The position numbers and the translations under genes are program-made. Below the pieces are notes generated by a model. That model was not told the origin of the DNA, searched no databases, and was given only the letters and a program-made list of their open reading frames with translations. A stretch of 64,000 nucleotides of DNA from Heterotrichella gracilis (lineage: Eukaryota; Sar; Xanthophyceae; Tribonematales; Xanthonemataceae), in NCBI GenBank assembly GCA_032358255.1, contig JAULBX010028271.1, positions 62,001 through 126,000 of the forward strand, in the 5' to 3' direction. Shown here in pieces: positions 6,769 through 60,982 of this stretch (positions are counted from its first letter, which is position 1; every line of letters begins with the position of its first letter).

Positions 6769-9700
6769 ATGAAAAACAGCAGCGAAACCCAAAGTAGCAA
6801 AGCTCCAACGGCAATCGTTGTTGGAGGCGGCATATCTGGTCCTGCCGTGGCAGTTGCTCTGCGAAAGCTGGTACGCATATTCACCCTGACACGACAACTC
6901 ACATGCATGCATGCCACAAAATACCCGCGCAGAGAGCTCGAGCGTTCCAGTGAGAACGCAACGGCGCTTACGAACATCTTGTTTTCCGTGTCTATGTGCA
7001 AAGTGTGTTGAAGGGCTTGTCTGGAACTTCGGCTCATTCCGAGACCCTGCAATCTACAGCTGTAACCGCGGCTTCACCCATTGCTGTGATCTGGGTTGGC
7101 CCGTCGCAGGGTGTGGAGGTATCCTTGTACGACAGAGCGCACGACCTGACGTTGGAGTCTGGCACCGGTCTGAGCCTCCACCCGAACGGCCTCAAAGCTC
7201 TCAAGGTCGGCTACACCAAGCAAAAAGCGTGCATGCCTGTCCAACGTGGCATTTCCTCAGGGTTAATGCACCAGTTCCGTACTGCATATCCTCTATTACT
7301 GGAATACCGCTTCATGCTTCATGCTTCCTTTTATCAAGACAAGCCTCGCCTCTTACAACCTCTGCCTGCAACACCCCAGGCATTCGAACCAGCCATCGTT
7401 CCAGAGCTGCTGCGCCATGGTGTTCTGCCCACTGAGCTATCTTTCGTCACTGAAGGGGGCACCCACATCCCTGCCCTGCACCCTGAAACCTTCCAAGAGC
7501 GGTTTGGCGAGCCCATGGTGAGAGTTGCACCTCGTCCACCGGTGGTCAGAGTAATAGCAACACTGGAGCCCTAAACCCTAACAGTGGATGCACCTCACCA
7601 CCAGCCCACAGGAGAGGCTGTGGAGGTGTTCTGTTGCTTTAACAACTTCTGCTTCGAGGAATTTAACCTGCAAATACCTATCAACTGCTTGAATAATAGT
7701 TACTAACCATGACCATGGTACCATTCTTTCCCGTTTGCAGCTTTTCATCCGCTGGAGCCGGCTGCAGTCTGTGCTGCACAGTTTCCTCCCCCTCTCCATC
7801 ATCCACCCCTGCCACACCCTGGTGCGCTTCCATGCCCCGCCAGGGGGGCGTGTCACAGCCACATTCAGGAACGCACAGGGAGAGGAGAGGGAGGTGGAGG
7901 CGGACATGATGGTGAGGCACAAATCAGGGTCTGCAAAATGAACCTCAACCCTAGAACCTTCAACATTGGGATCGCGTAAGGAGAGAAGAGGGACATATGG
8001 TGAGGCGCCCTACCTGGGTCTGCATAATGAACCCTGATTCAAGGTTCAGGGCCTGAACCGAAACTCTAAAACCTTAAATATTAACCCTTCAGAATCGTGC
8101 AAGGGGAGGAAAGGGAGGTGGAGGCAGACATGATGGTGAGGCGGCGATACAGATGAACCCTAAGCCCTAAACCCTAAACCCTGACACCTTTTCTATGCCA
8201 CTGCCATCAATGACTCATCCATACATCTTGTGCAAGCCAAACAGATCTGCTACGCTGGGGACTGGCTCGATTTGGGGATCAGGGTTTGGCATTATAGGGG
8301 TTGGGCAATCCCTCTTCCTTCCATCCCAATTCTATCCAATCCCCCCCCCCCCCCCCCCCCCCCTCTGCAGGTTGGTGCCGATGGCACCAACTCCGCAGTG
8401 CGCAAAGCCCTGGTGGGCGACGGGCCCCCAGTGGACTCTGGACGCTGCGTGTGGCGGGCCGTCATTCCCGCGCGGCCCGATTTTGTGGCGCCTGGCGCAT
8501 GCACAGTGATGGGCAAGGAGGGGAAGATGGCTATGGTGATGGACGTGGGGGACGGTGAGGATGGGTTGCAAAGCCATTTGTTTTTATGCATGTCTGGAAA
8601 GATACATGGTTGGGTGGGGGGCACACAAGCAGAGCACTGCAATCCCGTTTGTTTGCAAAAATGTGGTGTCCTGACCGTTTTGTAACTATGTGGTCCAGTG
8701 CATACAGCCACGTTATGGTGATGGATATGGGGATAGTGCAGTCCATTTTGCACCATGATGTGATTTCCTGACGTGATCTGTCAGACAATCAAAGAACACG
8801 TCGATTTTACTGCTGTGATTTGAGAAGAACAGCTCTCAATTTGTCACAAAAATATGGATTTGGTTTTGGATTACCGTGCCGGACTGATACTAGGCAATGT
8901 TGGAGCTGACTGTTGATTGGATAAAGCATTGTCTAGTATCAATACACGACATCGCTTCATGCAATGGACAATCAGCTGCACCATTTTCTAGTAGCAGGCC
9001 GGTGTGAATAATCCAAAGCATGTCCATTTCATGTGGCACTATGGGACCTGTTTTACACATTGTCTGACACTGTAGTCTTCATCGCTGATGGTTGCCGTGC
9101 CTCCGTTATCATGCATACAAGGCATGAGGACCGAGGCACAACAGCTGTTAGCGAACAAGACTACCTGCCAGACAGTGCGTGAAACAGCTCTCAAATTGCG
9201 ACAATACAATGGACGTGTTTGTGCAGTACATGGCAAAATCATCAGGATCCAAGTCCTCGTCCGCAAATTTACCCACCACGAATTCCATACAAGGTCCCTA
9301 GTGTAATGCACGCGGTTTTTGCGAGCTGTGCCGTGCTTGCTGGAAAGCGTTCAACCTGGGATTCCCACCCGCCTGTGCGCTCGTGCAGTGTGATCTGCGG
9401 CGCTGTTACCTCCCGCTCGCGAGGACAGCGGTCCCTCACTTCACAATACGGTTTTACCAGGCTGACATTGCCAGTTGGGTGAATGCGACTAATGTCTGGA
9501 AGCTGTAAAGTGATTATATTAGTGTCCACGTGTATCAGTTTGAAGGGTGCAATCCACTGCATGCTCTGCACTGGTTTCCAGGACGATCGCCTGTATGTGG
9601 TGTGCTGGCATACCCCTTTTGTGGTACTGTACCATGTGTGGGTGTCCTTCCCCATGCAGGTAAGACCTACTGGACTGCATCAGCCATTGGCGAGGCGCTG

Positions 9701-11319
9701 GCTGCGTTCAATCAGGACGACTTAACTATTGCATGATTCAGGATTTATTAATTCCCACCCTTCTACACCAGCTATTCTACTGCTTTCCCACCCTCAGAAT
9801 TGGTAAACCTCACCCACCCTGTGCGTGCCCAGCAACATGTGTGCATCCTTCCCCATGCAGGTAAGACCTACTGGACCGCATCAGCCACTGATGAGGCGCT
9901 GGCTGCATCCAATCTGAACCGATCAGCCTTTGCCAGCGTGGGCGATTACTTGCTGGAGGAGTACAAGCATGCGCACAAGATGAAGGACCTGGTGCAGGTT
10001 GGGCGCACCAAGCTGGACAGTGCACTTCATTATCATTTAAAACAGTAATCAAACTGGAAAAATGGAATTGTTGATACAAACATGTTTGGAGGTTATTTGT
10101 GTTTATAAAACGAGGTGTTTTGTAATCTGTACAGTTATTGGCAGGACACACCTGGGGGACCCAGTCGATGCGGCCATTGAGTATTTAGTCACCGATTTCA
10201 TGGCCATTTATTTTGCACTCCCATACTGAAAATTTTGCTAATTTGTTCGTTTCAAATGTCTGATTATCTATCGCTGGCCACCCCCATGTCCGGGACCATC
10301 CCTAAGCGCCGCACCATATCAGCCTGATTATACTTTATTATTTCCAGGCCACCCCCCCGGGCGCCATCCTTGCGCACCGCATCACCGACAGGCGCCCCAT
10401 TGGCCCCGGGGACCGCTGGCAGGGACCGGTGACACTGGCTGGGGATGCGCTGCACTCAGTCATTCCCTCCCTGGGCCAGGGTGCAAACCTGGCACTGGAG
10501 GGGGCGGCCAGGTGTGTCGCTAAAACCCTAAACCCTCACCCTAAATTCCCAACCCCAGAGTCTGTTATCAGCACCTCCCCCAGATGAGGGCCGAGGGTGG
10601 GTGAGGAACTGACAGGGGAGGATAACTTATTTATTACTCTTATTATTATTTATTTTGCTGGGGGGAGAGGATGTGGCCGCTATGGTGTTGGTGGGGGGCG
10701 CACGGCGTTTTGCCATATTTCCCATGGGGCAGACTCTAAACCCTACCCTCTAAACCCTGCTTCCCACAAAAGCAAGCTGGCACAGTCCCCAAACCTCACC
10801 CTTTACCCTGTATACAGACTGGCCATATATATTTTTAACCCCCATGTGCGCAGGCTGGCACTGGCATTGCAACGGGCAGGTATTGGGCCGCGGCCTGTGA
10901 CAGGGGAGGAAGTCGATTCTGCACTGAGGGAGTACGAGGAGGAACAGATTGAGCGCAGCATGTGGGTGCAGGTGGGTGCTTGGACTAGGGGTCCAGCCTG
11001 TTTGTGGTTTGTACTGTCCATCTGTTGGCACACCAGGAGCACACGATGTTCCGGCAGCCTGTTTCCAGCCACCAGAGAAGTTGTGGCTCGCTTGCGCCTT
11101 TTTTCATTCCTTTCAAACAACAGACATTTCTGCTGTATTCTGATTTGATTTGTTTCTGGCTTGCAGGCCGAGAGCAGCGCCAAGGGGAGGGAGGCATATC
11201 AAGTCAAATTTAAGGGTCAGCCCGGCATGGTGGTGGACAACCAGCAGCAGCTGTTTGGGGTGCAGTTTGAGGCGCTGAGGCCCAACATGCAGGGCGATGT
11301 GGTGGCCGATGGAGCCTAA
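6769..11319 (+). CDS. FAD-dependent monooxygenase (UbiH/PHBH, zeaxanthin-epoxidase-like family)
   Basis: Nine exons: 6769-6870, 7110-7205, 7380-7517, 7741-7911, 8371-8554, 9861-9997, 10348-10511, 10854-10971, 11167-11319; 1263 bases, 420 residues. An alternative start at 6724 gives 435. The class-A flavoprotein monooxygenase signatures are in order: dinucleotide-binding VVGGGISGPAVAVAL (residues 17-31), followed by a beta strand ending in an acidic residue (VEVSLYDRA); the DG motif VGADGTNSAVRKAL (170-183); and the second FAD motif LAGDALHSVIPSLGQGANLALE (about 306-327). Such enzymes hydroxylate or epoxidise aromatic or isoprenoid substrates using NAD(P)H and O2. The substrate cannot be read from the sequence. 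There is no transit peptide-like extension and no C-terminal FHA domain, so it is not a canonical zeaxanthin epoxidase. Exon edges of exons 4, 6 and 9 are duplicated nearby (separate entries). Confidence 0.88.
7876..8190 (+). repeat. Three-copy ladder of monooxygenase exon 4 donor edge
   Basis: The end of exon 4 plus the start of its intron (7876-7977) recurs at about 7978-8100 and 8101-8190. All copies keep ACAT(GAT)GGTGAGGC, and the copies carry (G)GGTCTGCA(T/A)AATGAAC or a remnant of it. The last copy runs into a telomere-like CCCTAAACCCTAAACCCT tract. Confidence 0.75.
8156..8186 (+). repeat. Telomere-like intronic tract (CCCTAAA)
   Basis: CCCTAAGCCCTAAACCCTAAACCCTGA in monooxygenase intron 4. 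It is the plant-type heptamer, too short and internal to be a telomere. Confidence 0.9.
8341..8370 (+). repeat. Homopolymer C polypyrimidine tract at the exon 5 acceptor
   Basis: About 22 consecutive C residues, then TCTGCAG, lead directly into exon 5 at 8371. The tract doubles as the polypyrimidine tract and as a length-unstable microsatellite. Confidence 0.85.
9335..9580 (-). mobile_element. Ty3/gypsy retrotransposon integrase C-terminal relic
   Basis: Inside the 1.3 kb intron 5 of the monooxygenase, the minus strand is open for WIAPFKLIHVDTN...LPDISRIHPTGNVSLVKPY followed by a GWESQVERF stretch. The pattern W-x-G/A-P-F-K-h, then L-P, then R-I-H-P-x-x-N-V-S-L-[LV]-K-P-Y is the well-known GPF/Y-type C-terminal module of Ty3/gypsy integrases. 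No protease, reverse transcriptase or LTR is seen, so this is a fragment. Its 5' side runs almost up to the duplicated exon 6 at 9661. Confidence 0.72.
9644..9738 (+). repeat. Truncated duplicate of monooxygenase exon 6 (pseudo-exon)
   Basis: CATGCAG|GTAAGACCTACTGG at 9655 is repeated at 9855, where the true exon 6 lies. The upstream copy matches the first 50 or so bases (GGCGAGGCGCTGGCTGCGTTCAAT) but then diverges and reaches a stop (TGA, 9734-9736) in the reading frame. It has the same acceptor as the real exon but no evident donor, so inclusion would truncate the enzyme before the second FAD motif. Confidence 0.8.
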
Positions 11320-11421
11320 ACCAGGGGGTACAGATGTCTTGTCACATGCTAGTTGGTCAGGGTAGTGCAGTCACGTGCAATTGGCACAGTCAGGTTGGCC
11401 ATGTTGTGCATGTTAGTTGGT

Positions 11422-11750
11422 GGCATGGCATGGTGGACAACCAGCAGCGCCTTTTTGAAGCAGGCAATTGGGGTGCGTTTTGAGCCGCTGAGGCCAAGCA
11501 GGAGTGTTGACCCGATTGCCAACGGCGATGGAGTGTAGATACAGGGCGTGGTCCGCCCTTAGTCTAGGAAATTCACGCTGTGGCGCACTTGGTGTGGCCA
11601 CGTTGGCCACCATATATATAGTAACATTATTTTGAATAGAGGATCGGGTAGGTGGTGGTTGGTTACGGTACATGGCATGGTGATGAAAATCAGCAACTGC
11701 CTTAAAAAAAGGCAGAAATTGGGTGGCATTTTATATTGCTGTCTGGAGCT
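11422..11750 (+). repeat. Two downstream echo copies of the terminal monooxygenase exon
   Basis: The block GGCATGGTGGTGGACAACCA...GATGGAGCC-stop (11231-11319) reappears at about 11428-11540, again ending GGCGATGGAGTGTAG. It reappears more weakly at 11671-11750 (CATGGCATGGTGATGAAAATC...). Both lie 3' of the real stop and are diverged. Confidence 0.7.
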
Positions 11751-13171: not shown

Positions 13172-13246
13172 CTCACATGTACCTCCCTGGCAGCGGTTTC
13201 TCAAACTGCCGCAGCCCCTTCAGCTTGACCCCTGGCAGCGAGTTCC
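13172..13246 (-). repeat. Echo copy of the terminal kinase exon
   Basis: The minus-strand copy of the C-terminal exon (GGGGTCAAGCTGAAGGGGCTGCGG...GGGAGGTACATG-stop) lies 235 bases beyond the real one (13407-13470) and retains the terminal GRYM-stop-like bases. Confidence 0.75.
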
Positions 13247-16400: not shown

Positions 16401-19400
16401 CGATGACCCAATGCTACATGTTTATTGCATGCGCAGTGTGGGTGGGGCGGAAGCCAAAGTAGATATTCCATATTCACTACATTTTTGTTTCATGTCCATC
16501 CATGGTTGATTCCACTGCTTCTCTTTCTGGCCCCCCGCAACATCACCGAGCCAACGTTTCTTCCAATAGCCATCTATGGTCACTGCTCATTTCCATCCAG
16601 TTTATCACTGACTTGTTTATATGCGTACCAGCCTTGTACAACAAGATTTTAAAAAATCCATCCTTTTCTTTCTTTTCCCCCTTGAATTTCAAAATGACCA
16701 AGCAGTTTCACCCCTGGGTGCGCCTCCCTACCTGCAGGTTTGGCATACTCCCATGCCCCCCCTTGCCCAGCCCCGCAAACATGGAAGGCACCGCCTGCTC
16801 GGCGTGCGCTGACCGCTTCTGAACCAGCTCCTGGCGCCGCACCTCCAGCTCAGACCTGCGAGTAGCGGTATATTTTTTAATTTAGGGTTGGTGATGTAGG
16901 GTTTAGGGTTTCCTGGCGAGGAGAAGGGACAGGGCTTCTGAACCAGCTCCTGGCGCTGCACCTCCAGCTCAGATCTGCGATCAAGGGGTATGTTTAAGGA
17001 TGAAGGGTTCGTGATGTGCGATTACATCATACGCATGTTATAGGGTTTGGAGTTATAGGGTCTAGGGTTGGTAAACCCTGTAGTGGATGTTTCCTTTCAA
17101 GGTGACTTTGCACCAGCTCCTGATTTTATTTTCAGGGGTTTTGGGTCTTACCTATGAGCTGCTGAGGAGCTGGCCGCTCGGTGAACGTCCACCTCTGCCC
17201 TAATCATTTTAGTGTTTTAGTTCAGTGTTTTGGTGTTCGGGGTTTCTGGGGTATTCCGGTGTTACCTGGGAGCTGCTGAGGAGCTGGCTGCTCGGTTGAG
17301 GTCCACCTCTTCCCTATTCATGGTGAAACTCCACTTTTAGGGTTTTAGGGTTTCGGGTTTTAAGATTTAGGGTTTCCGGGGTGTTGGGTCTTACCTGGGA
17401 GCTGCTGAGGAGCTGGCTGCTCGGTTGAGGTCCACCTCTTCCCGAGCCAACTGCTGGAGCTGCTCCGTCGGCATGGACACATGCTTTTGCAGGGGGGTCT
17501 GCTGCGGAGGGGGGTGAGGGGGAGAGTAAAAAGAGGGGTGGATATGCGCAGGGTGGGAGGGGAACATGCAGGGAAGAGGGGAATCATGCAGGAGGGGCAG
17601 GAGGAGTACGATATACGACATATTAACAGCTTTCTGGGAGGGGCGTGGCTGGTATGAGGCCACGATTGTATTCCATGGCAAAGCGTGCAGCAGTTATTCA
17701 GAGCAGCAGAACACAACCCCTGCTGCAGGGTTTCGCCCTGGAAGGACAAAAACCTACCCAAAGGTTTGAGCACGCAAGACAAAACCCTATCGTTGGGTTT
17801 CAACGCACCTTGGGTGCTCCCCTGGACACGCTCCCGCCAGATGCCCCTGAGCGCGCGTTCTTGCTTGCAAACACAGCCTTGACCAGGGATTTCACCCCCT
17901 TTTTCTTCTTGTCCTTGTCTTCGTGGGGCTCATCTGGAAGAAGCCACGGGGTGTATGTCAGGGGGACGACAACTAGGGTTCAGGTTGCTGGGTTTCAGAT
18001 TTCAGGGATTAGGGTTTGCCAGATGCCCAAGCTTTGCTTCTTGGCCCATGATGTTTGCAACAATTTACCCTAAACCCTAGCTCCGGACCCTCCCCTCCCT
18101 TCCAGACCCTCCCACTTCATCTTCACCCCAAATTTCTACCCAAACACCCTACCCAAACATAGCAACATACCTCCCTGCTCGTCCCACTCCCCCTCCTGAT
18201 ACCGCAGCTCCTCCTGCTTCTTGAGGCGCATGATGTCCATGACTTTACCATAAACCCTAAACCCTAGTAAAGAAAATAAAAACCTACCTCCCTGCTCGTC
18301 CCACTCCCCCTCCTGATACCGCTGCTCCTCCTGCTTCTTGAGGCGCATAATGTCCATGATTTTACCCTAACCCCTAAACCCTAGGAAAGAAAGGAAAAAA
18401 ACCCTACCTCCTTGCTCGTCCCATTCTCCCTCCTGATACCGCAGCTCCTCCTGCTTCTTGAGGCGCATGATGTCCATAATGGAAGTGCTACCCCCTGACG
18501 ACCCCAGTCGCCCCATGGTGGGAGGGCGCGCGGGGCGGGGGGGTACAGGGGAGGGGGGCTCATCGGTGGATGCTAGGGGGGTAGAGGGGGTGTCGCGGGA
18601 TTGCCTGGGCGGGTAGGGCCGGGGGTAAGGGGGTGATGGTGGGTGGGGGGAGGTGGGTGGGTTGAGGTAGCAAGCGGCGTTGCTGGCATGCATGTGTGCA
18701 TGCAAGTGTCGTACAAGGGTTTGCAAGGGTTCATTAGGCATCCAATTAGTGCAGGCACATTGTGAGGATCACGCCCTGCTCACAGCCCTCGCGCACCAGG
18801 TTTACACCGAGGGTTTCCCAGGTTTCAAGCTAGGGTTTTGCTAGGGTTTTCGGGCACGCACTCTCTGTACGAGTCCTGCACCAGCAGCGACTCATCCTGC
18901 TATCCTGGTAAATTGAGGTTCGCCAGGGTTTTCAACTAGGGTTTTGCTAGGGTTTGGAGTACTCACTCTCTGTACGAGTCCTGCACCAGCAGCGACCCAT
19001 CCTCCTATCCTAGTAAATCAAGGTTTTGCTAGGGTTTTGGGGTACTCACTCTCTGTACGAGTCGCGCACCAGCAGCGACCCATCCTGCTGCTTGTTGGCC
19101 AGCTGCTTTAGGACCCCCTCCAATCTGACCACAATGTCCAGGAATGAGGGGCGCTTGGAGGGGTTGTGGGACCAGCAGGACTCCAGGATCTCGTTCAGCT
19201 CGCCCATCACCTGCGGCAAGGAAGAAAGCGGATGGTTAGAATTCAGGTAAGGGAAAACCAATCGTGTGCTCTACACCCCTGCAGGTCTCGTTGAGCTCGT
19301 TCACAACCTGAGGCAGGGGGTAAGGGCGAGTGGGTGGGATTGGAATGAGGGCCCTCGGAGGGGTTTGGAACCAGCAGGACTCCAGGATCTCATTCAGCTC

Positions 19401-48441: not shown

Positions 48442-48805
48442 AAGGCATGCCATCCTGGTCCAGACGGGAAGCGATGCAGCAGACAGGATTGCAGTCAACG
48501 TATCCCCTAACTTAGGGTTTCTGGGCTGCATCAATGGGGCCAGCATGGGGAGGTGGCTGGGGCGCTCATCAATTCCACGCTGGTCAAGCCCAGGGTGGCG
48601 CGGGATGAAGTGGGAAAGGGGAAGAGAAAGAGGCAGCTCAGCAGCTTGGCGGTTGGCAGGCAGCTTGGTTGAGGGTTTAGCGTTTAGGGTTCAGGGTGTA
48701 TGGTGTAGGGTTTATGGTGTAGGGTATAGGCCGTTGCTAGGCAGCTTGGTTGGAAAAAGAAAAAGGAAGTGCATGGCATCCTGGTCCTGGCGCGAGGGGA
48801 TCAGT
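48442..48805 (+). repeat. Echo copies of the terminal glycosyltransferase exon beyond the stop
   Basis: CAGCATGGGGAGGTGGCTG through AAGAGAAAGAGGCAGCT (real: 48307-48402) is repeated at 48540-48665. A further remnant containing GGCATCCTGGTCC lies at 48730-48800. The copy is diverged and frameshifted. Confidence 0.85.
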
Positions 48806-49805: not shown

Positions 49806-52800
49806 ATGTCCCTCACTAGCGGCGGCGGCAGCAGCAGCCAGCGACCCACCCACCGCCACCACCATCACCGCCCCGCTGCGCTGGCCAGCTCCACCCCCCT
49901 CCAGGCGTGGCTGCAGCTCCCCCAGCGGCGCACCACCGCCACCGCCACCATGAGGAAGTCCACCGCCGCCAGCCACCTGTTCCACGCGTACAGGCTGTTT
50001 TCGTCCCCGGCAATCAAGTGCGTTATGCATGCCTGCGGCGGGTGGCTTCTCCCCTGCACCCACTCACCCACCCACCCACTACCCTTACCAGCACTTGGTG
50101 GCTCCCAGGACTGGATTTGTCACCTTGTTTTGTAGTTTTCTTCCTGCTCGCGTGCTTTTAACACGCAGGGTGGGTACAAGGGCCAGTGTGGTTGTTGAGT
50201 ATATGCATGCATATGGCCACCTAGGTTTGTGTTCGCCGCTCGCTCTTGCTTGTACAAAAACTAGCTAGCTATATGTTAGCCGCTTGCCCCTGCTGGTACA
50301 ACACTCTAGCCTCTTTAACCACCACCATAAACTGCCATAAACTAGCCAGCGTTGGGTGCCTGTGGTGATCTGCTGACCTTACGCGCACGCACACGGCGCC
50401 CACCCTTAGGTGTACAGCCCCTTTCCCCATTCCCACTCCAAAACCTTCTCCCAACCCCGCCTCCCCACCCCCCTTGGCCCAACCAGGTCCAGCACACCAA
50501 CAACCAGCCAATACAATGGTGGCAACAGGCAGTACGGCTCCCCAAATAATTGGAAGCAGCAGGCCCCCTCGGCCGTCCCAGACGACCTCCGGCCCAGCTC
50601 GGGAGGGGTGACACCACAGTACTTCAAGAACGTTTCCGCCATGAGGGAGAGGCTGGAAGCGGTTCGGAGGACGGGGGTGAGTGACGTGCGCAGGGCACCC
50701 CACCGGCCATCCCAAGGAGGCGCACCGGGCAACCCCCACCAGCCTCCCAATGGCGCCGCAGCACACGCCGTGCCGCGATCGGAGACGCACCAGCTGGCAT
50801 CCACCAGCGGCGGCGGCGGCGGGGGCGGGGGCGGCATCGACGCGCGTTCCGTCCCGTGGGACATGCGCAACTTTGCGACTGACCTGGCATGGGTGGATGG
50901 GCGCCAGGTGCCGCCGCAGGGGGCTCCGGTGAACGGCGCGTGGAGTGGCGCCGCCAACAGCATGCCGCGTGCCGCCTATGGCATGGCGCCGGCTGCCAAT
51001 GGCGTGACGCATTCCGTCAATGGCATGCCGCGTTCCGCCAATGGCATGGCGCCGGCAATGGCCTCCGCGGTGGCGTTGCACGAGGCGCTGCCAGGTGGCA
51101 CTGAGCCAGCTGGGGCGTACCTGGGATCCCAGCAGGGGGGGAGCTGGAGTGGGATGAATGGGGAGGGGAGAACGAGCACGCAGGGAGGGATGGGTGCCTG
51201 GGCTGACGTGGCGACAGTGGAGGTGAGAAACCCTAGGCTAGGGTGTGAGGTTTGGAAACGCGGTGTGATGCGCTGTTGTGGCATACCTGTATTGCCATGT
51301 ACACCAGCATTAACCCGCACTTTACTTCATGGTTGTACAGACAATTACAGGAACGTGTTTGGCAAGTCTTCACTCGCCCCCCCCCATAGCTCCCCTTCTC
51401 CTCTCTCACCCTATCCACCCCACCCTCACCATTCCCTAATCTTATAATCTCTCATGTTCACCTTGGCCTCACTCCCCTCTGTCAACCCCCTCCCCCGGCC
51501 TCTCACCTCACCCCTCACCAACCCCCTTGCAGGCCGCTCAGCAGCTGTCTGCCCTTGACCTGGACCCAGCAGGGGAGGAGACTGAGGTGGCTGCAGGAGG
51601 GGAGGTGTGGGATCCATCACCGCAGGTATGGAGGAGTCATAAGGCCTTATTTTTCTTTACATTGCTTGGGGAGTACTAATGCATGGGGCCGACACAAGGC
51701 AGCAGCCTTGTGAATGAATGGGGTACCAATTGCATGCCGCACAACCTGTCATATGGCATACAAGCATGTTTAGTAGGCAAAAGGGGGGCTGGTGACACTA
51801 AATCCATGCTTGATGCACACCACCTTACACACGCATGCTTCTGTTGGTGGGGCACATGCATTCCAGCCAGCCTTGCATACAAGGATCCATACCATAAGCT
51901 GCACACGTAAGCAAAATCAAAACGAAAGAAGTAACAATCAATCATCAATCAGTCAAAAAACGAAGTAGCAAATAATAATCGATCAAAAAATTACAGAAAA
52001 GAAGTAACAGTTAAAAATCTATAAATCCAATGTCTCTTACTTGTGTGTGGCACCCCATCCCTGCAGGTGTTTCGGGTAGAGACCGCTGCTGTAGCTCGCC
52101 AGCTGGCAGCCAGGCTCACCAATGAGCTGCATGACCAGGTGTTTGCATGCGACACAGAGGTAAGAGTGTTTGCGTAGGGTTTTGGCATAGGACTTTTGTG
52201 TAGGGTTCAGGGGTTGTTGCATGACCAGGTGGTTTGCATGCGACACAGAGGTAAGAGTGTTTGCGTAGGGTTTTGGCATAGGACTTCTGTGCAGGGTCCA
52301 GGGGTTGTTGCATGACCAGGTGGTTTGCATGCGACACAGAGGTAAGGGTTCTTGCATAGGGTTGTGATGTACGGTTTAGGGGTGACTGCTTGACCAGGTG
52401 TTTGCCTGTGACAGGGAGGTAAGGGTTCGGAGTAGGGTGTACACGTAGTGAGGGTTTTGAGTAGGGTGTACACGTAGTGATTGCTGGAGACTGCACGATC
52501 AGGCATATGCCTCTGACACAGAGGTAGGGGTTTTGCGTGGTGTAAGGGGTTGTTGTTGGGTTATCTGGGTGAAGAAAGGCGAGAGCATGTCCAGGGTTGA
52601 AAACAGGACTTAGAGAATGTGCTTGCCTTTGTGGAAAACTGATACTTTAGGGAACAACCAGATTTTGCTTGTGGCACAAGTGGGAGAGATTTTCCATAGG
52701 TTTCAAGGGTGGTTTTAGGGTTGTGACTTGGTGATCTTCCTGTGGAATCATCCTGGTAAGGGTAACAGGCGCTTTGTGCTTATCCTGCTACAATGCCACC

Positions 52801-55800
52801 ACTGACCCAATCTGCCTAGGGCAATGCCGCCCCCACCAACCCACTCCAAGAAAACCCTAAACCCTAGCATAAACTCCAATCCAACCCCCTTGCAGGTGAT
52901 GAAGATCGATGTGACGAGGGAGTCACCCATCGGCCACGGGGAGGTCATCTGCTTCTCGCTCTACTGCGGCCCCAACCATGATTTTTCGGATGGCACTGCG
53001 GACGAGCCTCAGAGCATGATCTGGGTGGACACCTGGCTGAATGGGGAGCAGGTGGGTGGTGGTGGCGGTGGTGGCGGCGGTGGTGGTGGTGGTGGTGGTG
53101 GCGGCGGTGGAGGGGAGGTTTGGAGAATGGTTGTCAGAATGGTTTTTTGGGGGATGGAGGTGTGCGTCTCCCATCGTGTTGCATTGGATTCCATCTCATT
53201 TTATATGATCACTTTTACTCGCCTGGTGGCAACACAATGAACAAATTAGTTGAATGCACACCAGCATCTCATCATCATGGCTTTGTGTAGTTGACCTCAC
53301 TAACTCACGCTGTATGCACTTTTTTGATCCAATCGAATTTCATCCAATCCCATCCCATCTAATCAAATCTAATCAGACCTAATTCGTTCTCATTCCCCCG
53401 CAGCCCGAGGAGGCTGCAGCCATCATGGACGCCTTCAAGGGTTTCCTTGAAAACCTTAACATTAAGAAAGTGTGGCACAACTATGGCTTTGATCGCCACG
53501 TGCTGGCCAACCACCAGGTGGTGTGCAGGGGCTTCCATGCAGACACCATGCACCTGGCAAGGTGAGGAGAAACCCTAACAAGAACTTTACAATGTACTGT
53601 ACGGCATCATGCGGAAGCCCTGCACCAGAGGCCAGCACTATGGCAACTATGGAACTTGGCGCGCACTGGCTATCGCCATGTGGAGTGCAGGTGTTTTATT
53701 TCAAAAGGCTTCCATGCACCTGGCTTGGTGATACTAAACCTCTAGCAGATAGCAAATACCCTGCAAGTCAGCCCTTTCCTACCCAATAGCAAATGCGCTA
53801 TAAGTCACTTCTTCCCTAGCAAATAACAAATACCCTACAAATACCCCTCCTCCTCCTCGTAACAGGTTGTGGGACTCCTCTCGGACCTTCAAGGGGTACA
53901 CACTGGAATCGCTGTCAACAGATGAGAAGCTGTTTGCGGGGGTGGCCGATGTGGACCCCCGGGATTTGGCGCGGGGGAAGGTTTCCATGAAGAAGCTGTT
54001 TGGCAAACCCAACGTGAAGAAGGATGGGACCCCCGGGAAGGTGGGTAATGGCCATCATTGAATAAAAAGCATTGGTTGTCTCAAGGACCAAGAGGTGTAG
54101 GGTTTAGGGTTTATGCTTATGGAGGGTCAACTTGTGTGGCCACACATCACAACCAAAGCGTCTGGTAAATGTCTTCGGAAGAGGGGGGCATGGTCAACCC
54201 TAAATCAAGAAATGGGTCCCTTAGCCCATATAAACCTCAGCCACCCCCTCCGCACCTGGTGGTGCTTCCCCCCGTGGAGGAACTCCAACTGTCCCCTGAG
54301 ACCCGCGCCATGTGGGTGGGCTACTCCGCCTTTGATGACTGCTCCACTTGGAACGTGTACACACTCCACCGCTCCCCAGGACCCTAAACCAATAGACCCT
54401 GAAAGCCAATTCCAACCCTTACCCTTCTTCTCCATGGTCCCACAGCTGGTGGTGCTTCCCCCTGTGGAGGAGCTGCAGCGGTCCCCCGAGACCCGTGCCC
54501 TGTGGGTGGGCTACTCCGCCTTTGATGCCCGCTCCACCTGGAACGTGTACACAGCGCTGTGTGGGCGGCTGAGCACCTTGCCTGTGGAGATGGAAAACAC
54601 GCTGGCCAAGTACTATGCAAAGGTGGGTGCTTTACCCATGATGTCTTGCCCTAAAACTTTAAGCTTATACCCTAAATTTTGCTGGGATGGAATCACAATG
54701 GCCAAGAGCAGCGCGATGAATGGTGCTTCCCATAACAGGAAATGTATGTCTAATTTCTGACATATCTGATCTGTGTCATTGGACCGTTACTGTATCAGTT
54801 ACAGCTCTACTCACAAATGTACAGTCACAGTTGCAGCTACATTGCGTGCCCCAACAGGATGCATCCACCAACAGCGGCCACACGCCATGCATCTCCCCCT
54901 TTCATTAGGGTCAAATCCGCTCTCTGGAAAGACACAAAGCTGCAGGGTGTGTGCTTTCCCCTGCATGCTTACCTACAACCTAAACCCAGCCGGTGTTGCT
55001 TCTGCCCCTTGTTAGTTACATGCATTTCAGCCGTACAAGCATGGACAGTCGACCTGGTAACCCAGAGGGTTCAAGGGTTTGGAACCAGGGCTACAGACTG
55101 CTCACTCTCTGTTCCTAAACCATGCTCTTTTCCCCTTGCTTGAAGGTGGATGCGGCGAGTGGTGGTGGGTACGGTGGGGGCGCCAATGGGGAGTGGCGCA
55201 AGCCCAGCATGCTTGAGCTGTACCACCGCTTCTGGCAGCCATTTGGGGAGCTGCTCACGGATATGGAGAGGGAGGGCATGCTGGTGGATAGGTATGGTGC
55301 GGAGGTATTGGGGATCTAGAATAGGGTGTTATTGTCATTGCTGTCCGGTGGTCCTTCCATACACCGTGCTCTCTTTTGAAATCCAGCATGCTTTAGGGTG
55401 TTATTGTCATTTCTGTACCACCGCTTCTGGCAGCCCTTTGGGGAGCTGCTCACGGATATGGAGAGGGAGGGCATGCTGGTGGATAGGTGGGGGGTGGATG
55501 GTGGTGGCGGTGGCTGATGTGTAGCTGTGGGTGGGTGGGTGGGTGGGTGGAGAGTCCAATTGTTGTGTTGGGGAATGCCGCAAGCCCAGCGTGCTGGAGC
55601 TGTGTCATGGGTTGTGGCAGCTGATTTTGGAGCTGCTCATGGTTATGGAGAGGAAGGACAGGAACCCTGGCAGGAATTTTTGGGAGCACCTGCGCTTGGC
55701 CGGTATCCAGGCCCTGGCTGACCAACAGGAGGCCTCACGCTCTCAGATCGCCAGCCCAAAACCCTGCAAACCCTGTCTAAAACCCCTCAAACCTGACCAA

Positions 55801-58800
55801 TACCCTACTGCACAGAGAGCACCTGCGCCTGGCCGGTGTCCCTGACCAACCAAGCGGGTTTAGGGTTTACGGTTTAAGGTTTAGGGTGCGCCTGGCCGTG
55901 TCCCTGACCAACCAAGCGGCGGTTCAAAGGGTGGGCGGAGGCGCACATGGCGGGCGCAAAGCACAACTGGAAAAACCCTGTAGACCCTGCCCAAAAACCC
56001 ACAAAAACTCCACGTGAAACCCTGATTAATGCTCTATCGCTGACCAATGCCCTACCGCACAGGGAGCACCTGCGCCTGGCCGGTATCCAGGCCCTGGCCG
56101 ATCAAGAGGAGGCCAAGCGGCGGTTCAAGGGGTGGGCGGAGGCGCACGTGGCGGGCGCCAAGTACATGAACGTGTCCTCGGGTGCCCAGATCCGGCAGCT
56201 GCTGTTTGCCAACATCAGGAACAGCAAGAAGGGGGAGGAGGTGCTGGAGGGGGAGAGGGTGTTCAAGGTAATGGGGAGGGGAGTTGGTTTTTTTCTGTTA
56301 CAGCCATCCTGCTTTGATGAGTGCGAGTGTACCAGGGTGATGACAACACCCCACCAGGCCTATAACATCGCATCGAGCCCCGGTGACAAGCTGTAAACCC
56401 TGTAAACCATGACCCATACCCTCACCCAAACCCTCCTAGGCGGTCAACGAGGAGGGCTACATCAGGCCGGTCCGCACGGCATCCAGTAAACCCTATTCCG
56501 GACCCTAATATAATCCAAAACCCTCCCCCCCCACTAGGCGGTCAACGAGGAGGGCTACATCAAGCCGGTCCGCACGGCACTCAGTCAACCCTATTCCGGA
56601 CCCTCATATAATCCAAAACCCTACCTCCTGCAGGCGATCAACGAGGAGGGCTACATCGAGCCCGGCCGCAAGGCCCCCAAAAAGAACATCGAATTCACCC
56701 TCTACGGCGTGTGGGGCCCCGGGAACCCCCCCAAAATTGAGCCAGATGTGTGGACCCCCAGCGGGTGGCCCGCTGTGAGCACCCCTGTGCTGCGGGGGCT
56801 GGCGGGCAAGCCTGGGGCGGCCCGCAAGGCGCTGCGGGAGCTGGAGGAGGCTGAGGGGGTGGGGGTGGATGCGCCTGAGCGTGAGCGGTGGGGGGTGGGG
56901 TGGTGGCGGTGGTAGATGAACCTGGGAGTGAGTGGTGATGGTAGGGCGGGATGGGGTGGGGTGTGTGAATGTTTGGTTTGTAGTACCTCCGTTATATTAG
57001 GTTTCTCACATAGCCTGTTGCAATCTATCGCCCATCCTAGGTTAGGGGTTGGCGGGAGACCTGGGGTTGCGTGAAAGGCGTGTGCGCACACATGTTCACC
57101 AAACACGTCTTGCCCACTGAACCCCTGTCCTGTCTCTAGTTTTAATCCTCACTCCACTTGCCGCCATGCAGTTGTGCCCATCGACGACATGCTGGACGAT
57201 GAAGCAGACACCTGGGCGGTGGACGATGCCGAAATCAATGCCAAGCAGAAGGAGATGGAGCGGCGTGAGGAGGAGGCTGAGAGCCAAGCACAGCCCGCCA
57301 CGTCAGCAGAGCTGCAGGCATTCGAGGACGAGGCTCGGGCAAGGGGGTTTGGCAAGCTGTATGCGGCGTTTGGGGGGGGGAGGGCGGGGCTGGAGGCATG
57401 CGCGGCAGGTGGGTGGTGGTGGCGGCGGTGGTGGTGGTTGTGGCGGTGTTTATGGCGATATTGGTGTTGGTCGTGGTGGTGGTGAATCTTATCCCTGACT
57501 GACTGAGATGTTGGGAATGTGAACTTGCGCCAAGACCCCCTTCACACCAACCCTGGGCAACCCGCAACAGGAATCCTAGCAAACCCTACGCAAAGTTGAA
57601 TCTCTCAAAATCCCAACAAAAAGCCTAACAAACCCTAACAAATCTCTCCCTGGCGCAGTTGACGCGCTGTGCGAGCTGAGCGCCATCGACACCCTGCTCA
57701 ACAGCTTCATCCTCCTCTAAACCCTAAACCCTAAACAGACGCCAACTCCACCGAGTGCACTAATCCGATTAGTAAGGCTTAAACAGCTTCATCCTGCCGC
57801 TGCAAGTGAACTTGCGCCAAAAACCCTTTATACCAACCCTAGCCAGCCCCAACAAACCTCTATAGAACCCGCACGAGTCACATCCAACAGCACAACCAAA
57901 TCCTTGACAAAAAGAATGGCCAGGCCAACATCAAACCTGGTTTTTTTAGGTAAAAGCCCTAATCTCCCCTAACAAAACCCTCCCCCTAATTTGCAGTCGA
58001 CGCGCTGTGCGAGGTGAGCGCCATCGACACCCTGCTCAACAGCTTCATCCTGCCGCTGCAAGGGGACGCAATCTCCACGCCCGACCACCGGGTGCACTGC
58101 TCCCTCAACATCAACACGGAGACGGGGCGCCTGTCTGCGCGCAGGCCCAACCTGCAGAACCAGCCCGCGCTGGAGAAGGACCGCTACAAGGTGGGGGGAT
58201 GGCTTAGGGTTGGGTTTTAGGGTTTAGGGATTGGGGTTCGGGGCCTGACCTGCAGAACCAGCCTGCGCTGGAGAAGGACCGCTACAAGGTAGGGTCTGGG
58301 ATAGGGTTTAGGGTAGTTGTTTAGGGTTTGGGGGCCCAACCTGCAGAACCAGCCTGCGCTGGAGAAGGGCCGCTACAAGGTAGGGTCTGGGATACGGATT
58401 AGGTCCTAGGCGCCCAATATGCCCAGCCTACACTCGTTCCCCCACCCTTCTCCCCCAGGAAGCGGCAGGCGGGAAGCGTTTGAAGTTGGTTCTGGGGCTT
58501 GGCGTGATGGAAGGTGTAGGATTTTACTCGTTTATGATGGGAGATACCATGCTTATAGATAGAATTTTCATTCCTGTACTCTGCGTGGTGAACGCAAGTT
58601 ACCACGCAGGTTACTTTGCCACTGCCCCGCATTGATTAACAACAACCTCGCCCCTCCCCGTCCACCGCAGGTACGCAAGGCCTTCCGGGCAGACACCGCC
58701 GCCGGCAAGACCCTGGTGGTTGCCGATTACGGCCAGCTGGAGCTGCGGCTGCTTGCACACATGGCGGGGTGCAAGTCCATGCTGGAGGCGTTTGAGCTGG

Positions 58801-60982
58801 GGGGCGATTTCCACTCAAGGACCGCGCTGGCCATGTATGACCACATCAAGGAGGCCATTAAGAATGGTGCGTTCTCAGGGGAGGATGTAGGGGTGTAGCA
58901 CTCGAGAAGTTCTTTGATTCGGAATGGTGCGTATAATGTTAGGGGGTAACAATCAAAAGATTATCAGGGTTTGGGGTCAAGGCGCGCTGGCCATGTATGA
59001 CCACGTCAAGGGGGACATTCGGAATGGTGCATAAGTAGTTTAGGGCCCAGACTGTGTCACAAGGTAGGGTCCTGGGGTTGGTTGAGGTGCTGTGCACATG
59101 ACGACCTCTCAGAAGCGGGCAGGAGGGGAGTTGTGGGCGGGTTTAGGAGCTGAGGTGAAAATGTGTTGTAAGATGAAAATAGGCTGCCCCACCTTTCCAG
59201 CACACTGCACATGTGGGCACCCACAAGCACCCCCCACTCACCCCTTCTTCCTACCCCCCAGGTGATGTAATACTCGAGCGCGACGGGAGCGAGGAGGGCA
59301 AGGATGTTCCCATGCTGAAGGACAAGTTTGGTGCTGAGCGGCGCAAGGCCAAGGTGCTCAACTTTTCCATCGCCTATGGCAAGACTGCGCACGGCCTGAG
59401 CAAGGACTTTGGCACCAGTTTAGAGGAGGCGCAGGACACTGTGAAGCGGTGGTACTCGGACCGGAAGGAGGTAAGTGGAGTGCGCACGACGAGTGTGTGC
59501 ATGTGGAGGGTGGAGGGGGAAGGGAGGGCGGTGAAGCATTGTTACGTGGGTGGTGGTTTCTATCCATGGAGGGGGACTGTGTACGGTCTGAGCAGGGGCT
59601 TTGCTATTAGTCTATAGGAAGCCCAGGACGCTGTGAAGCGGGGGTATTCGGACAGGAAGGAGGTGCGTGGTGTGGGTGGGAGTACAGGGGGGTTGGGTGG
59701 ATGAAAAAGAAAAACCGTTCGTGGATCGTAATCCTCCTGGTTCCAATGGTATCTCCCTCCAGGTAGAGCAGTCCCAGGCCTTGTCATAATCACAATCACA
59801 ATCATGTATCATCATACTGTAACAATTACAAAACCACTGCAATGATGCCCCCCAGGTGGAGACGTGGCAGGCCAAGCAGCGCAAGGAGGCTTCCACCACT
59901 GGCAAGGTGCGCACCCTACTAGGGCGCCAACGCAGGCTGCCAGCCGCGATGGAGCGGGGGCGCAGCGCCGCGCACGGCCACGCCATGCGCGCCGCCATCA
60001 ACACTCCCATCCAGGGCAGTGCCGCTGACGTGGCCACCGCCGCCATGCTGTCCATCATGCGCTGCGAGCGGCTGCGGGAAATGGGCTGGAAGCTGCTGCT
60101 GCAGGTGGGTTTAATTAGGGTTTAGGGTTTTGGTAACAGGTAGTTCAGGGTTTGGGGTCAAGAGAGTTTAAGGTTTGGGTGGCTCCGGGAGATGGGCTGG
60201 AAGCTGCTGCTGCAGGTAGGTCTAATTAGGGTTTAGGGTTTTGGGAACAGGTAGTTTAGGGTTTGGGGTCAAGAGAGTTTAGGGTTTGGGCGGCTGCGGG
60301 AGATGGGCTGGAAGATGCTGCTGCAGGTGGGGTTATGGGTCTGGGTTTAGGGTCTAGTGATCAGAGGGGTTTGGGGGCCGGATGGGGCTGCAGGTGGGGG
60401 TTCAGATCAGGGTTTGGGGTTTGGGGATCAGATGTGGGCCATCGCCGCCATGCTATCGATCATGCGCTGCGAGCTGCTGCGGGAGATGGGCTGGAAGCCG
60501 CTGCTGCAGGTGGGGCTTGGGGTCTAGGGTTTAGGGCATGGGCATGAGAGGGTTTAGTGTTTGGATGCCTGATAGGTGATACCTGGTCTGCATGTGGGGT
60601 TCAGGCATAAGGGTTGCGCTTGAATGACTGTGGGGACTAGGCAGGTTGGGGTTCAGGTTGAGGGCTGACCATTTGCAAGGAGCTGGGCTGGTGGGGTTTC
60701 AGTGTGTTGGCTGTAGAATGGATTAACATTACCCAGGTTGGTCACCCTCCTAACTGGTATGTTAATGGGCGATTAGATTGGCTCTATGTACAATACTGAT
60801 GTATGACCCCTTCCGCGCAGGTGCACGATGAGGTCATTTTGGAGGGCCCCAAGGAGACTGCCGAGGAGGCGCGGGCCCTGGTCATCAAGTGCATGGAGGC
60901 ACCCTTTGAGGGCCACAACCCGCTGAATGTGGCGCTGCTGGTGGACAGCAAGATTGCCGACACCTGGTATGAAGCCAAGTAA
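49806..60982 (+). CDS. POP: Plant-type organellar DNA polymerase (POP, family A, with 3'-5' exonuclease)
   Basis: Seventeen exons: 49806-50017, 50487-51222, 51533-51625, 52067-52159, 52896-53051, 53404-53561, 53866-54040, 54446-54622, 55146-55291, 56063-56267, 56634-56880, 57172-57408, 57997-58190, 58671-58866, 59262-59470, 59856-60104, 60821-60982. Total 3645 bases, 1214 residues. It replicates and repairs plastid and/or mitochondrial DNA. A Ser/His/Arg-rich N-terminus fits dual organelle targeting, followed by a long Gly/Ser-rich linker. Exonuclease: DTE (Exo I, about 376-378), HNYGFD (Exo II, about 455-460), YSAFD (Exo III, 564-568). Polymerase: motif A ADYGQLELRLLAH (about 961-973), motif B RRKAKVLNFSIAYG (about 1035-1048), motif C VHDEV (about 1162-1166), plus NTPIQGSAADV. 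DYGQ instead of bacterial DYSQ, and the insertion before motif B, are plant POP features. All catalytic residues are intact. Somewhat longer than land-plant POPs because of the linker. It carries the densest set of exon-edge copies in the window. Confidence 0.95.
52125..52530 (+). repeat. Five-step ladder of polymerase exon 4 donor edge
   Basis: GCATGACCAGGTG(G)TTTGCATGCGACACAGAGGTAAGAG occurs at the real edge (52129-52166), 52220 and 52311. More decayed copies lie at 52385 and 52490. Units are about 90-105 bases and decay with distance from the exon. Confidence 0.92.
53052..53113 (+). repeat. GGT/GGC microsatellite immediately after an intron donor
   Basis: About 60 bases of GGTGG(C/T)-type repeats begin at the GT of polymerase intron 5. 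The antisense poly-proline open frame here is an artefact of the repeat. Confidence 0.9.
54255..54385 (+). repeat. Partial copy of polymerase exon 8 (Exo III motif)
   Basis: Encodes LVVLPPVEELQLSPETRAMW and GYSAFDDCSTWNVYT, almost the same as the real exon at 54446, then stops. It ends in CCGCTCCCCAG. It lacks an AG directly before the homology, so I treat it as a pseudo-exon. Confidence 0.88.
55410..55950 (+). repeat. Chain of polymerase exon 9 and exon 10 edge copies, one of them fused
   Basis: A donor-edge copy of exon 9 lies at 55416-55490. A second copy (55567-55740) runs from exon 9-like sequence straight into exon 10-like sequence without an intron (RKPSVLELCH ... MVMERKDRNPGRNFWEHLRL, then AGIQALADQQEA). 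Further acceptor-edge copies of exon 10 are at 55816-55850 and 55886-55960. Confidence 0.85.
56437..56600 (+). repeat. Two copies of polymerase exon 11 acceptor edge
   Basis: TAGGCGGTCAACGAGGAGG at 56437 and 56535 precede the real AGGCGATCAACGAGGAGG at 56632. The copy starting 56538 is in frame with, and open into, the real exon (96 bases upstream). Confidence 0.92.
57652..57815 (+). repeat. Copies of polymerase exon 13 acceptor edge
   Basis: The first copy (from CAG at 57657-57659) encodes VDALCELSAIDTLLNSFILL then a stop, with a good acceptor and matching phase. A second, shorter one (AACAGCTTCATCCTGCCGCTG) lies at 57781. The real exon starts at 57997. Confidence 0.9.
58195..58390 (+). repeat. 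Copies of polymerase exon 13 donor edge
   Basis: CCTGCAGAACCAGCC(C/T)GCGCTGGAGAAGG(A/G)CCGCTACAAGGT(A/G)GGG is present at 58150 (real), 58248 and 58339. The units are joined by TTTTAGGGTTTAGGGATTGG-type tracts. Confidence 0.93.
58905..59035 (+). repeat. Copies of polymerase exon 14 donor edge
   Basis: GCGCTGGCCATGTATGACCAC followed by (A/G)TCAAGG..GCATT and AATGGTGC recurs at 58982-59031. A short remnant (TTCGGAATGGTGCGT) lies at 58918. Confidence 0.88.
59570..59672 (+). repeat. Copy of polymerase exon 15 donor edge
   Basis: GGTCTGAGCAGGGGCTTTGC ... GGAAGCCCAGGACGCTGTGAAGCGGGGGTATTCGGACAGGAAGGAGGTGC mirrors 59390-59474, with an in-frame TAG where the real exon has GAG. Confidence 0.9.
60105..60520 (+). 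repeat. Copies of polymerase exon 16 donor edge
   Basis: CGGGAGATGGGCTGGAAGCTGCTGCTGCAGGT recurs with donors after 60215, 60326 and 60509; the real donor follows 60104. Spacings are 111, 111 and 183 bases. The fourth copy is longer and includes GCCATGCTATCGATCATGCGC. TTTAGGGTTT tracts lie in every spacer. Confidence 0.93.

What the first reader, a model, noticed from the sequence alone, without database searches (positions are those of the whole stretch)
7876..60520. Pervasive ladders of exon-edge copies inside introns
In most multi-exon genes here, one or both edges of many exons are repeated one to four times inside the adjoining intron. Copies span the splice site, usually keep the AG|GT or acceptor, and decay with distance from the real exon. 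They are commonly spaced by TTTAGGG-like tracts. I count more than 25 such loci, in genes on both strands. Ordinary intron drift does not make this; it implies an ongoing, boundary-anchored tandem duplication process that enlarges introns out of exon sequence.
Basis: seen in the sequence. Interest (0 to 1): 0.88.

Follow-up and report, generated by a model that had tools for sequence, protein, structure and literature searches.

The report
Exon edges copied into neighbouring introns
In this green alga many introns hold one or more decaying copies of the edge of the exon beside them, often separated by telomere-like repeats, which looks like the scars of an unusual DNA-break repair that keeps enlarging introns.

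Summary
In 314 kb of this 68.5-Mb chlorophyte genome, 81 of 500 modelled exon edges have a copy in their own intron, against 1 of 4000 comparisons with foreign introns. 75 of 250 introns carry a copy (window: 23 of 50). Donor copies nearly always reach the splice site (51 of 56), acceptor copies mostly (27 of 37). No near inverted pair was found. Copies look like neutral relics: differences fall 25/28/47% on codon positions 1/2/3, which argues against an allelic assembly artefact.

Plain two-copy tandem duplication fits badly. Of 21 edges whose nearest pair is >=80% identical, none is a simple tandem; 11 have a spacer without a further copy, and 10 are or may be arrays. Spacers are often degenerate TTTAGGG. 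Telomeric tracts cluster beside exons and are often flanked by direct, never inverted, repeats.

Best reading: staggered breaks at exon edges, repaired with telomerase-type filler and a long target duplication. Boundary enrichment survives a genic null with detection bias (79 vs 14, P=6e-7), though survivorship explains part. "Decay with distance" is weak (18 vs 11). The enzymes, and why breaks sit at exon edges, are inferred.

The parts
7864..8142 (+). donor edge of exon 7741-7911 (FAD-binding-domain gene) and its copy 8088-8142 in the intron
   Evidence: BLAST pair 85% over 55 bp; exon; Pfam PF01494
9637..9919 (+). acceptor edge of exon 9861-9997; copy 9637-9718 upstream, 87% identical
11224..11500 (+). 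end of the last coding exon copied into the 3' flank behind the stop codon
   Evidence: pair 71%, classed exon-internal to noncoding
17130..17443 (-). donor edge of exon 17395-17501 with two intronic copies (91%, 89%), telomeric spacer 17336-17375
18138..18507 (-). donor ladder of exon 18408-18604: two intronic copies (86%, 96%) and telomeric spacers 18251-18266, 18364-18383
18834..19089 (-). donor ladder of exon 19050-19210, two copies at 92%, telomeric spacer 18925-18955
19141..19435 (-). acceptor edge of exon 19050-19210; copy 89% identical upstream
19819..20110 (-). acceptor edge of exon 19742-19894; copy 81%
21664..21862 (-). acceptor edge of kinase-domain exon 21464-21730; copy 87%
   Evidence: kinase PF07714/PF00069
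22434..22859 (-). donor edge of ankyrin-region exon 22751-22913; copy 78%
   Evidence: ankyrin Pfam matches
22844..23151 (-). acceptor edge of the same exon 22751-22913; copy 70%: both edges copied
23302..23479 (-). donor edge of exon 23427-23560; copy 85%, telomeric spacer 23394-23417
25592..25867 (-). donor edge of exon 25805-25962; copy 76%
36380..36665 (+). donor ladder of exon 36296-36430, two copies (90%, 78%), unit 108 bp
45245..45563 (+). acceptor edge of exon 45522-45683; copy 67% over the whole block
46128..46482 (+). donor ladder of exon 46028-46177, two copies (93%, 78%)
46898..47296 (+). acceptor ladder of exon 47208-47429, two copies (77%, 81%)
47323..47875 (+). donor ladder of the same exon: copies at 90%, 91% and 77%, the outermost with a longer exon part (107 vs 69 nt); telomeric spacers 47443-47466, 47559-47589
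48291..48668 (+). end of last coding exon (stop codon 48439-48441) and its copy (88%) in the 3' flank
48648..48752 (+). telomere-like insert 48672-48728 flanked by a direct repeat (48648-48671 and 48729-48752, 21 of 24 nt) inside that 3'-flank copy; picked out by eye
52127..52543 (+). donor ladder of exon 52067-52159, units of about 91 bp with TAGGG-rich spacers
   Evidence: exon scored 11, below the core threshold of 12
54250..54553 (+). acceptor edge of exon 54446-54622; 114-bp copy at 89%, its AG lost
55145..55660 (+). donor ladder of exon 55146-55283, copies 98% and 82%
55682..56166 (+). acceptor ladder of exon 56063-56267, three partial copies (86-92%)
56397..56679 (+). acceptor ladder of exon 56634-56880, two copies (85%, 89%), C-strand telomeric spacer 56487-56524
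57619..58051 (+). acceptor edge of exon 57997-58190; copy 83%
   Evidence: there classed exon-exon because the copy was modelled as an exon; 97% over 59 bp of it
58144..58410 (+). donor ladder of DNA polymerase A exon 57997-58190, two copies (94%, 96%), telomeric tracts 58204-58229, 58290-58329
   Evidence: junction continuous in the Taq alignment
58815..59030 (+). donor edge of exon 58671-58866; copy 88%
59383..59674 (+). donor edge of exon 59262-59470; copy 80%
60032..60615 (+). donor ladder of exon 59856-60104: two short copies plus an outer, longer copy, TAGGG spacers
   Evidence: exon joins 60821 as LLLQ|VHDE without insertion against Taq polymerase

Best explanation
The ladders are scars of repeated staggered-break repair at exon edges. 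Two strand interruptions some tens of bp apart, one in the exon and one at or just beyond the splice site, open the DNA. A 3' end is extended with telomere-like repeats (telomerase or an equivalent), the overhangs are filled in and the ends are joined. The result is X-D-filler-D-Y: the exon edge D (about 20-110 nt of exon plus mostly 1-45 nt of intron, splice site included) is present twice around a filler, typically about 40-160 bp. The D copy contiguous with the exon stays in use; the other becomes a neutral decoy inside the intron. Recurrence at the same edge, and later exchange between D copies, build ladders, often with a step near 100 bp, and lengthen introns. SHOWN: the structure, its excess at exon edges, neutrality of copies by codon pattern, telomeric filler in a large fraction, same orientation, copies of different D length at one edge, presence of a telomerase RNA-binding domain. 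INFERRED: staggered breaks, telomerase as the enzyme, fill-in, and the reason breaks concentrate at exon edges.
For: Copies in own intron at 81 of 500 edges vs 1 of 4000 foreign-intron, 0 of 229 opposite-edge and 0 of 500 reversed controls at the same score. With telomeric motifs masked, in 192 introns >=300 bp, 49 donor and 27 acceptor edges have a copy, against a mean of 2.8% of random 90-nt intron segments in 120 introns without an edge copy. 75 of 86 nonredundant repeat loci touch a core exon. Boundary pairs 79 vs null 27.7, noncoding pairs 20 vs null 63.0, 1000 displacements; at >=85% identity 18 vs 3; within genes with two-fold detection bias P=6e-7. No simple two-copy tandem among 21 nearest pairs >=80%; 11 have a spacer without a further copy. 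Telomeric tracts (n=240, 239 tested): ratio to random control sites 0.18 within 150 bp of an exon, 0.06 deep intron, 0.014 intergenic away from exons, 0.16 intergenic near an exon (from the counts); flanked by direct repeats at score 16 in 47% (intron near exon) and 34% (deep intron) vs 23.5% and 8% of controls, inverted 0%. Of 71 tracts with flanking repeats at score 20, 10 lie within 5 nt of the repeat on both sides, 3 of them flush. On the donor side telomeric 6-mers fill 11-12% of the first 50 intron bp and about 4.5% of the next 50. 200 of 240 tracts carry one telomeric strand only. Donor-side fillers carry G and C strands about equally, 6.2% and 5.4%. Telomerase RBD over cut-off. Third-position excess 46.5%.
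Against: Only 8 of 18 young spacers are clearly telomeric, so telomerase is not needed for every event, or fillers decay fast. 10 of 21 nearest pairs >=80% are arrays or have a further copy in the spacer, and could come from ordinary tandem expansion. Gaps at the 5' and 3' ends of the G strand show no asymmetry (medians 10 and 8), and most tracts are not flush. 40 of 240 tracts mix both strands. Acceptor-side fillers are C-strand biased (5.5% vs 1.1%), which splicing needs may explain. Local repeats are not exclusive to exon edges: random 90-nt segments of all introns score >=24 against the rest of their intron in 21 of 192, mean 10% over ten rounds, 7% masked. No empty site from a relative or allele was available, so insertion is inferred from structure. 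Part of the boundary excess is explained by survivorship and slower decay. Intron parts of D reach 64-145 nt in some pairs. Gene models are self-trained, without RNA evidence; the pairs counted for codon positions are not all independent.
Confidence: 0.45

Rival explanations
1. Survivorship only: small duplications with filler arise uniformly. Those inside exons are lost, those spanning an exon edge are tolerated, and the frozen exon keeps them recognisable longer than intron-only ones.
For: Copies look neutral. Splice dinucleotides decay about as expected. Null shares rise from 0.31 to 0.44 within genes and 0.61 with a two-fold detection advantage. Intron segments are repeated too.
Against: Observed share 0.85 still exceeds this (P=6e-7 all pairs in genes; P=0.004 at >=85%, 18 vs 3). 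Intergenic telomeric tracts away from exons are scarce. D is shifted to the exon side, mean exon share 0.71 vs 0.5, n=25 pairs, some from one edge.
Confidence: 0.23
2. Pre-existing G-rich telomeric motifs at intron starts stall replication or transcription and trigger slippage, duplicating about 100 bp around them; the tract is cause, not filler.
For: Telomeric sequence is densest in the first 50 bp of introns, all introns pooled. Several window arrays repeat D plus tract as a unit of 91-117 bp. 10 of 21 nearest pairs are or may be arrays.
Against: No simple two-copy tandem among 21 nearest pairs >=80%; in 11 the spacer is not part of a further copy. Donor-side tracts show no strand bias. Many young spacers are not telomeric.
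Confidence: 0.18
3. Assembly artefact: two haplotypes or misjoined reads placed in tandem.
For: Cannot be excluded by reads here; the assembly has 903 contigs.
Against: Allelic copies would both be constrained, but first and second codon positions differ freely (211, 236, 389). Copies show indels and lost splice sites, occur in 2-4 copies often with telomeric spacers. No second allele contig found for the two regions searched.
Confidence: 0.03
4. The copies are functional: alternative exons or decoy splice sites kept by selection.
For: Most copies still carry GT or AG (43 of 54, 20 of 32), and a few were modelled as exons.
Against: Codon-position pattern fits one constrained and one free copy. 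Core exons alone give open reading frames for three genes and continuous homology for the polymerase.
Confidence: 0.04
5. Intron birth by tandem genomic duplication or introner insertion, with these as remnants.
For: Both make exon-edge similarity near introns.
Against: No intron with donor and acceptor flanks repeated in register (4 of 250 vs 2 of 250 control at score 20, none in register). The best spacer-to-spacer matches printed share only telomeric or simple sequence.
Confidence: 0.03

Closest known systems
Interstitial telomeric sequences inserted at double-strand breaks in mammals (PMC2246262, passages read)
   Same: Short telomeric tracts inserted at break sites, sometimes with duplication of the target (6 of 130 rodent and 4 of 25 primate cases in the table seen)
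   Different: Here duplications are long (tens of bp up to about 110), the tracts concentrate at exon edges inside genes and copies recur at the same edge; no empty orthologous site was available
Small tandem duplications made by CST-guided Pol alpha-primase fill-in of 3' overhangs (PMC8355091, abstract and outline read)
   Same: Staggered break, fill-in and end joining give a duplicated target; the same complex works at telomeres (recalled)
   Different: Here many duplicates are separated by filler and sit on splice sites; enzymes untested
Telo boxes in plant genes with a telomerase-at-transcription-breaks model (PMC3022908, passages read)
   Same: Telomeric motifs in genes attributed to telomerase acting on free 3' ends opened by transcription
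   Different: There mostly 5' regions and first introns and one motif; no flanking exon-edge duplication appears in the passages read
[quoted passage not shown]
   Same: A duplication crossing an intron-exon boundary
   Different: Here no new intron was seen; existing introns grow and the copy becomes noncoding
Introners (PMC9860276, passages read)
   Same: Insertion-driven intron sequence, reported in green algae
   Different: No shared element family seen, duplications far longer than 3-9 bp, spacer without its own splice pair

Membership tests
Interstitial telomeric sequence inserted at a break | telomere-like repeats at an internal site | tested here: met
   240 tracts of >=13 bp in 314 kb
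Interstitial telomeric sequence inserted at a break | insertion relative to an empty orthologous site | not testable with these tools
   no relative held; own-genome searches found no allele for two regions
Interstitial telomeric sequence inserted at a break | target sequence duplicated around the insert (seen in a minority of known cases) | tested here: met
   direct repeats flank 47% (near exon) and 34% (deep intron) of intronic tracts, controls 23.5% and 8%; 21 of 24 nt around 48672-48728
Interstitial telomeric sequence inserted at a break | bases at the break in register with the telomeric repeat | tested here: inconclusive
   gaps between tract and repeat are symmetric and only 10 of 71 tracts are within 5 nt on both sides; register itself not scored
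Pure tandem duplication | copies adjacent, alignment length equals spacing | tested here: not met
   0 of 21 nearest pairs at >=80% identity with ratio 0.9-1.1; 4 arrays, 17 spaced, of which 6 have a further copy in the spacer; 5 of 67 simple tandems at any identity
[quoted passage not shown]
   none in register of 250 introns
Introner | many introns share one element sequence | tested here: not met
   68 spacers compared all against all; best score 28, and the best matches printed share only telomeric or simple sequence
CST-Pol alpha tandem duplication | dependence on CST, Pol alpha, 53BP1 and Shieldin | not testable with these tools
   Stn1 model gave no match anywhere, controls included; CTC1 request unanswered

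The most novel reading that the evidence does not exclude
Working splice junctions in this alga are themselves targets of a transcription- or splicing-linked break process. Its repair by telomerase-type synthesis duplicates the exon edge around telomeric filler, again and again, so that introns grow outward from their exons out of exon copies and telomere repeats.
Probability: 0.3. Interest if true: 0.88.

Novelty: new variant of a known kind. Interest (0 to 1): 0.72.

Why it matters
How introns lengthen is usually put down to transposons and drift (general knowledge). Here 11% of intron bases lie in detectable local duplications and 15% in these or telomeric motifs, and 30% of introns carry copies of their own exon edges. 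That gives a record of break repair at splice junctions, a source of ready-made decoy splice sites, and a possible link between telomerase, transcription-linked breaks and intron growth that can be tested in a unicellular alga. Nothing like it was seen in the listings of eight searches of open-access papers, each limited to its terms; subscription papers are mostly not held.

Tried and rejected
Plain two-copy tandem duplication: fits badly by spacing. Haplotype artefact: argued against by codon pattern. Intron birth by duplication: no register match. The one strong hit there, C2 117940-118349 (coordinates within my 200-kb C2 stretch), is two similar exon segments, not a donor-acceptor repeat. 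Introner-like family of spacers: none seen. Allelic or paralogous empty site: none for two regions. Selection on decoy sites: no sign. CST subunits: uninformative. Species name: not found; the LHCA hit and TTTAGGG only say chlorophyte green alga, and the organism labels behind those PDB entries are recalled.

Limits: the first gene-finder settings failed (error, over-chaining) and one search was used. The score threshold 12 and length >=50 dropped low-scoring exons, among them the exon at 52067-52159, which I take to be real. Eleven near pairs were dropped by the filters; all eleven touch exons. In one search the printed GT and AG tallies were an index error and were redone. In one search the joined polymerase model had 11 stop codons, one of them the terminal stop and the others in its first half (a wrong exon boundary of mine), so only its second half was used for homology. 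The 361-aa ORF at 45-48 kb matched no Pfam family.

One nearest pair per edge gives 11 of 21 clearly spaced, so I lowered the main confidence from 0.50 to 0.45 and raised the slippage rival (0.15 to 0.18) and survivorship (0.22 to 0.23). The direct repeat around 48672-48728 is 21 of 24 nt, not 22.

Full report
What is there. The window is part of a 68.5-Mb, 903-contig nuclear genome with chlorophyll a/b-binding genes; one of them matches LHCA proteins (that the best entries are green-algal is recalled). Self-comparison of the window gives 60 same-strand repeat pairs, 53 of them within 2 kb. The alignments show exon ends or starts, with splice signals, repeated on the intron side. I added 200 kb of contig C2 and 50 kb of C46 as comparison, chosen by position only. 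Near same-strand complex pairs number 48, 61 and 14 (75, 30.5 and 28 per 100 kb), near inverted pairs 0, and no shift below 75 bp appears, although one C2 array has shifts that are multiples of about 63 bp. The window is therefore rich, but the pattern is not local to it.

Gene models. With no annotation, I trained an exon-chain finder on these sequences: 305 core exons and 251 introns, of which 250 were usable. Checks: core exons alone, skipping all copies, give open frames of 625 aa (ankyrin-kinase), 308 aa (FAD-binding domain) and 361 aa (no Pfam match). The second half of the family-A DNA polymerase aligns with Taq polymerase across ladder-bearing junctions, for example LLLQ|VHDE, without an insertion there. 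At these loci the ladders are thus intronic.

Is it more than chance? 53 of 250 donor edges and 28 of 250 acceptor edges have a copy in their own intron at score >=24. Controls: 1 of 4000 comparisons with foreign introns of similar length, 0 of 229 with the opposite edge of the same exon, 0 of 500 reversed. Against exclusivity: random 90-nt segments of the introns score >=24 against the rest of their own intron in 21 of 192. Ten further rounds average 10%, or 7% with telomeric motifs masked. Much of that is the ladders themselves: in 120 introns without an edge copy it is 3.7%, or 2.8% masked, while masked edges score in 49 of 192 (donor) and 27 of 192 (acceptor).

Anchoring. Of 123 pairs, 83 span an exon edge with the partner in the adjoining intron; 20 are noncoding only, 13 exon-exon and 7 exon-internal to noncoding. 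Under random displacement, boundary pairs average 27.7 (maximum 42 of 1000 runs; observed 79 by that script's stricter rule) and noncoding pairs 63.0 (minimum 47; observed 20). Of 86 nonredundant loci, 75 touch a core exon. Because exon-spanning pairs decay more slowly, I repeated the test on young pairs (>=85%: 18 vs 3), and within gene spans with a two-fold advantage (79 vs 14, expected share 0.61, P=6e-7; at >=85% P=0.004). The excess stands, but it is several-fold rather than absolute. Of the best copies at score >=22, 51 of 56 donor copies and 27 of 37 acceptor copies reach within 3 nt of the exon edge. Coverage by repeats is about 16% of donor-side exon positions within 40 nt of the edge, falling to about 6-7% near -120, and about 10% at +40 to +60 in the intron before rising again where copies lie.

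Structure. Taking one nearest pair per edge at >=80% identity (21 edges), 4 are arrays, 17 are spaced and none is a simple two-copy tandem. In 11 of the 17 the spacer holds no further copy; in 6 it does at score 18. At any identity 5 of 67 are simple tandems. So about half of the young cases are not plain tandem duplications, and the rest could be arrays that grew by exchange. In 25 spaced pairs (some from one edge) the exon share of the block averages 0.71 (P=1e-4 against uniform). The outermost copies at 47765-47870 and 60437-60560 carry longer exon parts than the inner ones, so separate events seem to have hit the same edge. Steps between ladder copies are often 84-117 bp, others larger.

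The spacer. Telomere-like tracts (>=13 bp, n=240, 239 tested) are about three times denser within 150 bp of an exon than deep in introns and about thirteen times denser than in intergenic DNA away from exons (ratios of tract to control counts). They are flanked by direct repeats in 47% (intron near exon) and 34% (deep intron) of cases, against 23.5% and 8% of control sites, and by inverted repeats in none. At some loci the whole spacer is degenerate TTTAGGG: of 71 single-strand tracts with flanking repeats, 10 lie within 5 nt of the repeat on both sides, 3 of them flush. In the 3' flank a telomeric insert at 48672-48728 is bounded by a 21-of-24-nt repeat, an example picked by eye. Against this, only 8 of 18 young spacers are significantly telomeric, and acceptor-side spacers are C-strand biased while donor-side ones are not.

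The copies look like relics. Differences in the exon part of the 83 pairs fall 211, 236 and 389 on codon positions 1, 2 and 3, with 146 indel bases. By my estimate a constrained exon plus a free copy gives about 48% at position 3; two constrained alleles would give far more. Splice dinucleotides are kept at about the rate expected from overall identity. The nearer copy is the more identical in 18 of 29 comparisons, a weak tendency.

How it works. The simplest single account is break repair with telomere-type filler and long target duplication, recurring at exon edges. Precedents: telomeric insertion at mammalian breaks, some with target duplication (PMC2246262, passages); small tandem duplications from Pol alpha-primase and CST at 3' overhangs (PMC8355091, abstract and outline); and a proposal that telomerase acts at transcription-opened 3' ends in plants (PMC3022908, passages). 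A telomerase RNA-binding domain is encoded. That the same machinery acts here is inference. Splice donors here are G-rich (PWM) and could be good telomerase primers; this is an idea, not a result.

Novelty. Direct repeats near splice sites of 4-30 bp have been reported (PMC11782384, abstract and passages), as have duplications that create introns (PMC4974935, abstract and passages). Exon-edge ladders with telomeric spacers were not seen in the listings. I rate it a new variant of a known kind: break repair with telomeric insertion, in a new setting and with a new product.

Noticed in passing
window 48291-48668 and 11224-11500: The ends of last coding exons are copied behind the stop codon into the 3' flank, so the phenomenon is not limited to splice sites.
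   Followed up: partly
window vs C2 and C46: The window carries about 2.5 times as many local repeat pairs per 100 kb as two other stretches (75 vs 30.5 and 28).
   Followed up: no
whole genome G000: 834 exact (TTTAGGG)3 matches (406 forward, 428 reverse), the listed ones spread over many contigs.
   Followed up: partly
L029 3352-10375: Several related segments 69-78% identical in C46, probably tandem paralogs; could supply intron comparisons.
   Followed up: no
C2 stretch 117940-118349 (L020): Start of one exon resembles the end of the preceding exon (score 58): a coding tandem duplication or a copy taken into the model.
   Followed up: no
window 30712-30877 and 31787-31944: A 64% identical repeat pair 1.07 kb apart in noncoding sequence, the widest filtered near pair of the window.
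   Followed up: no
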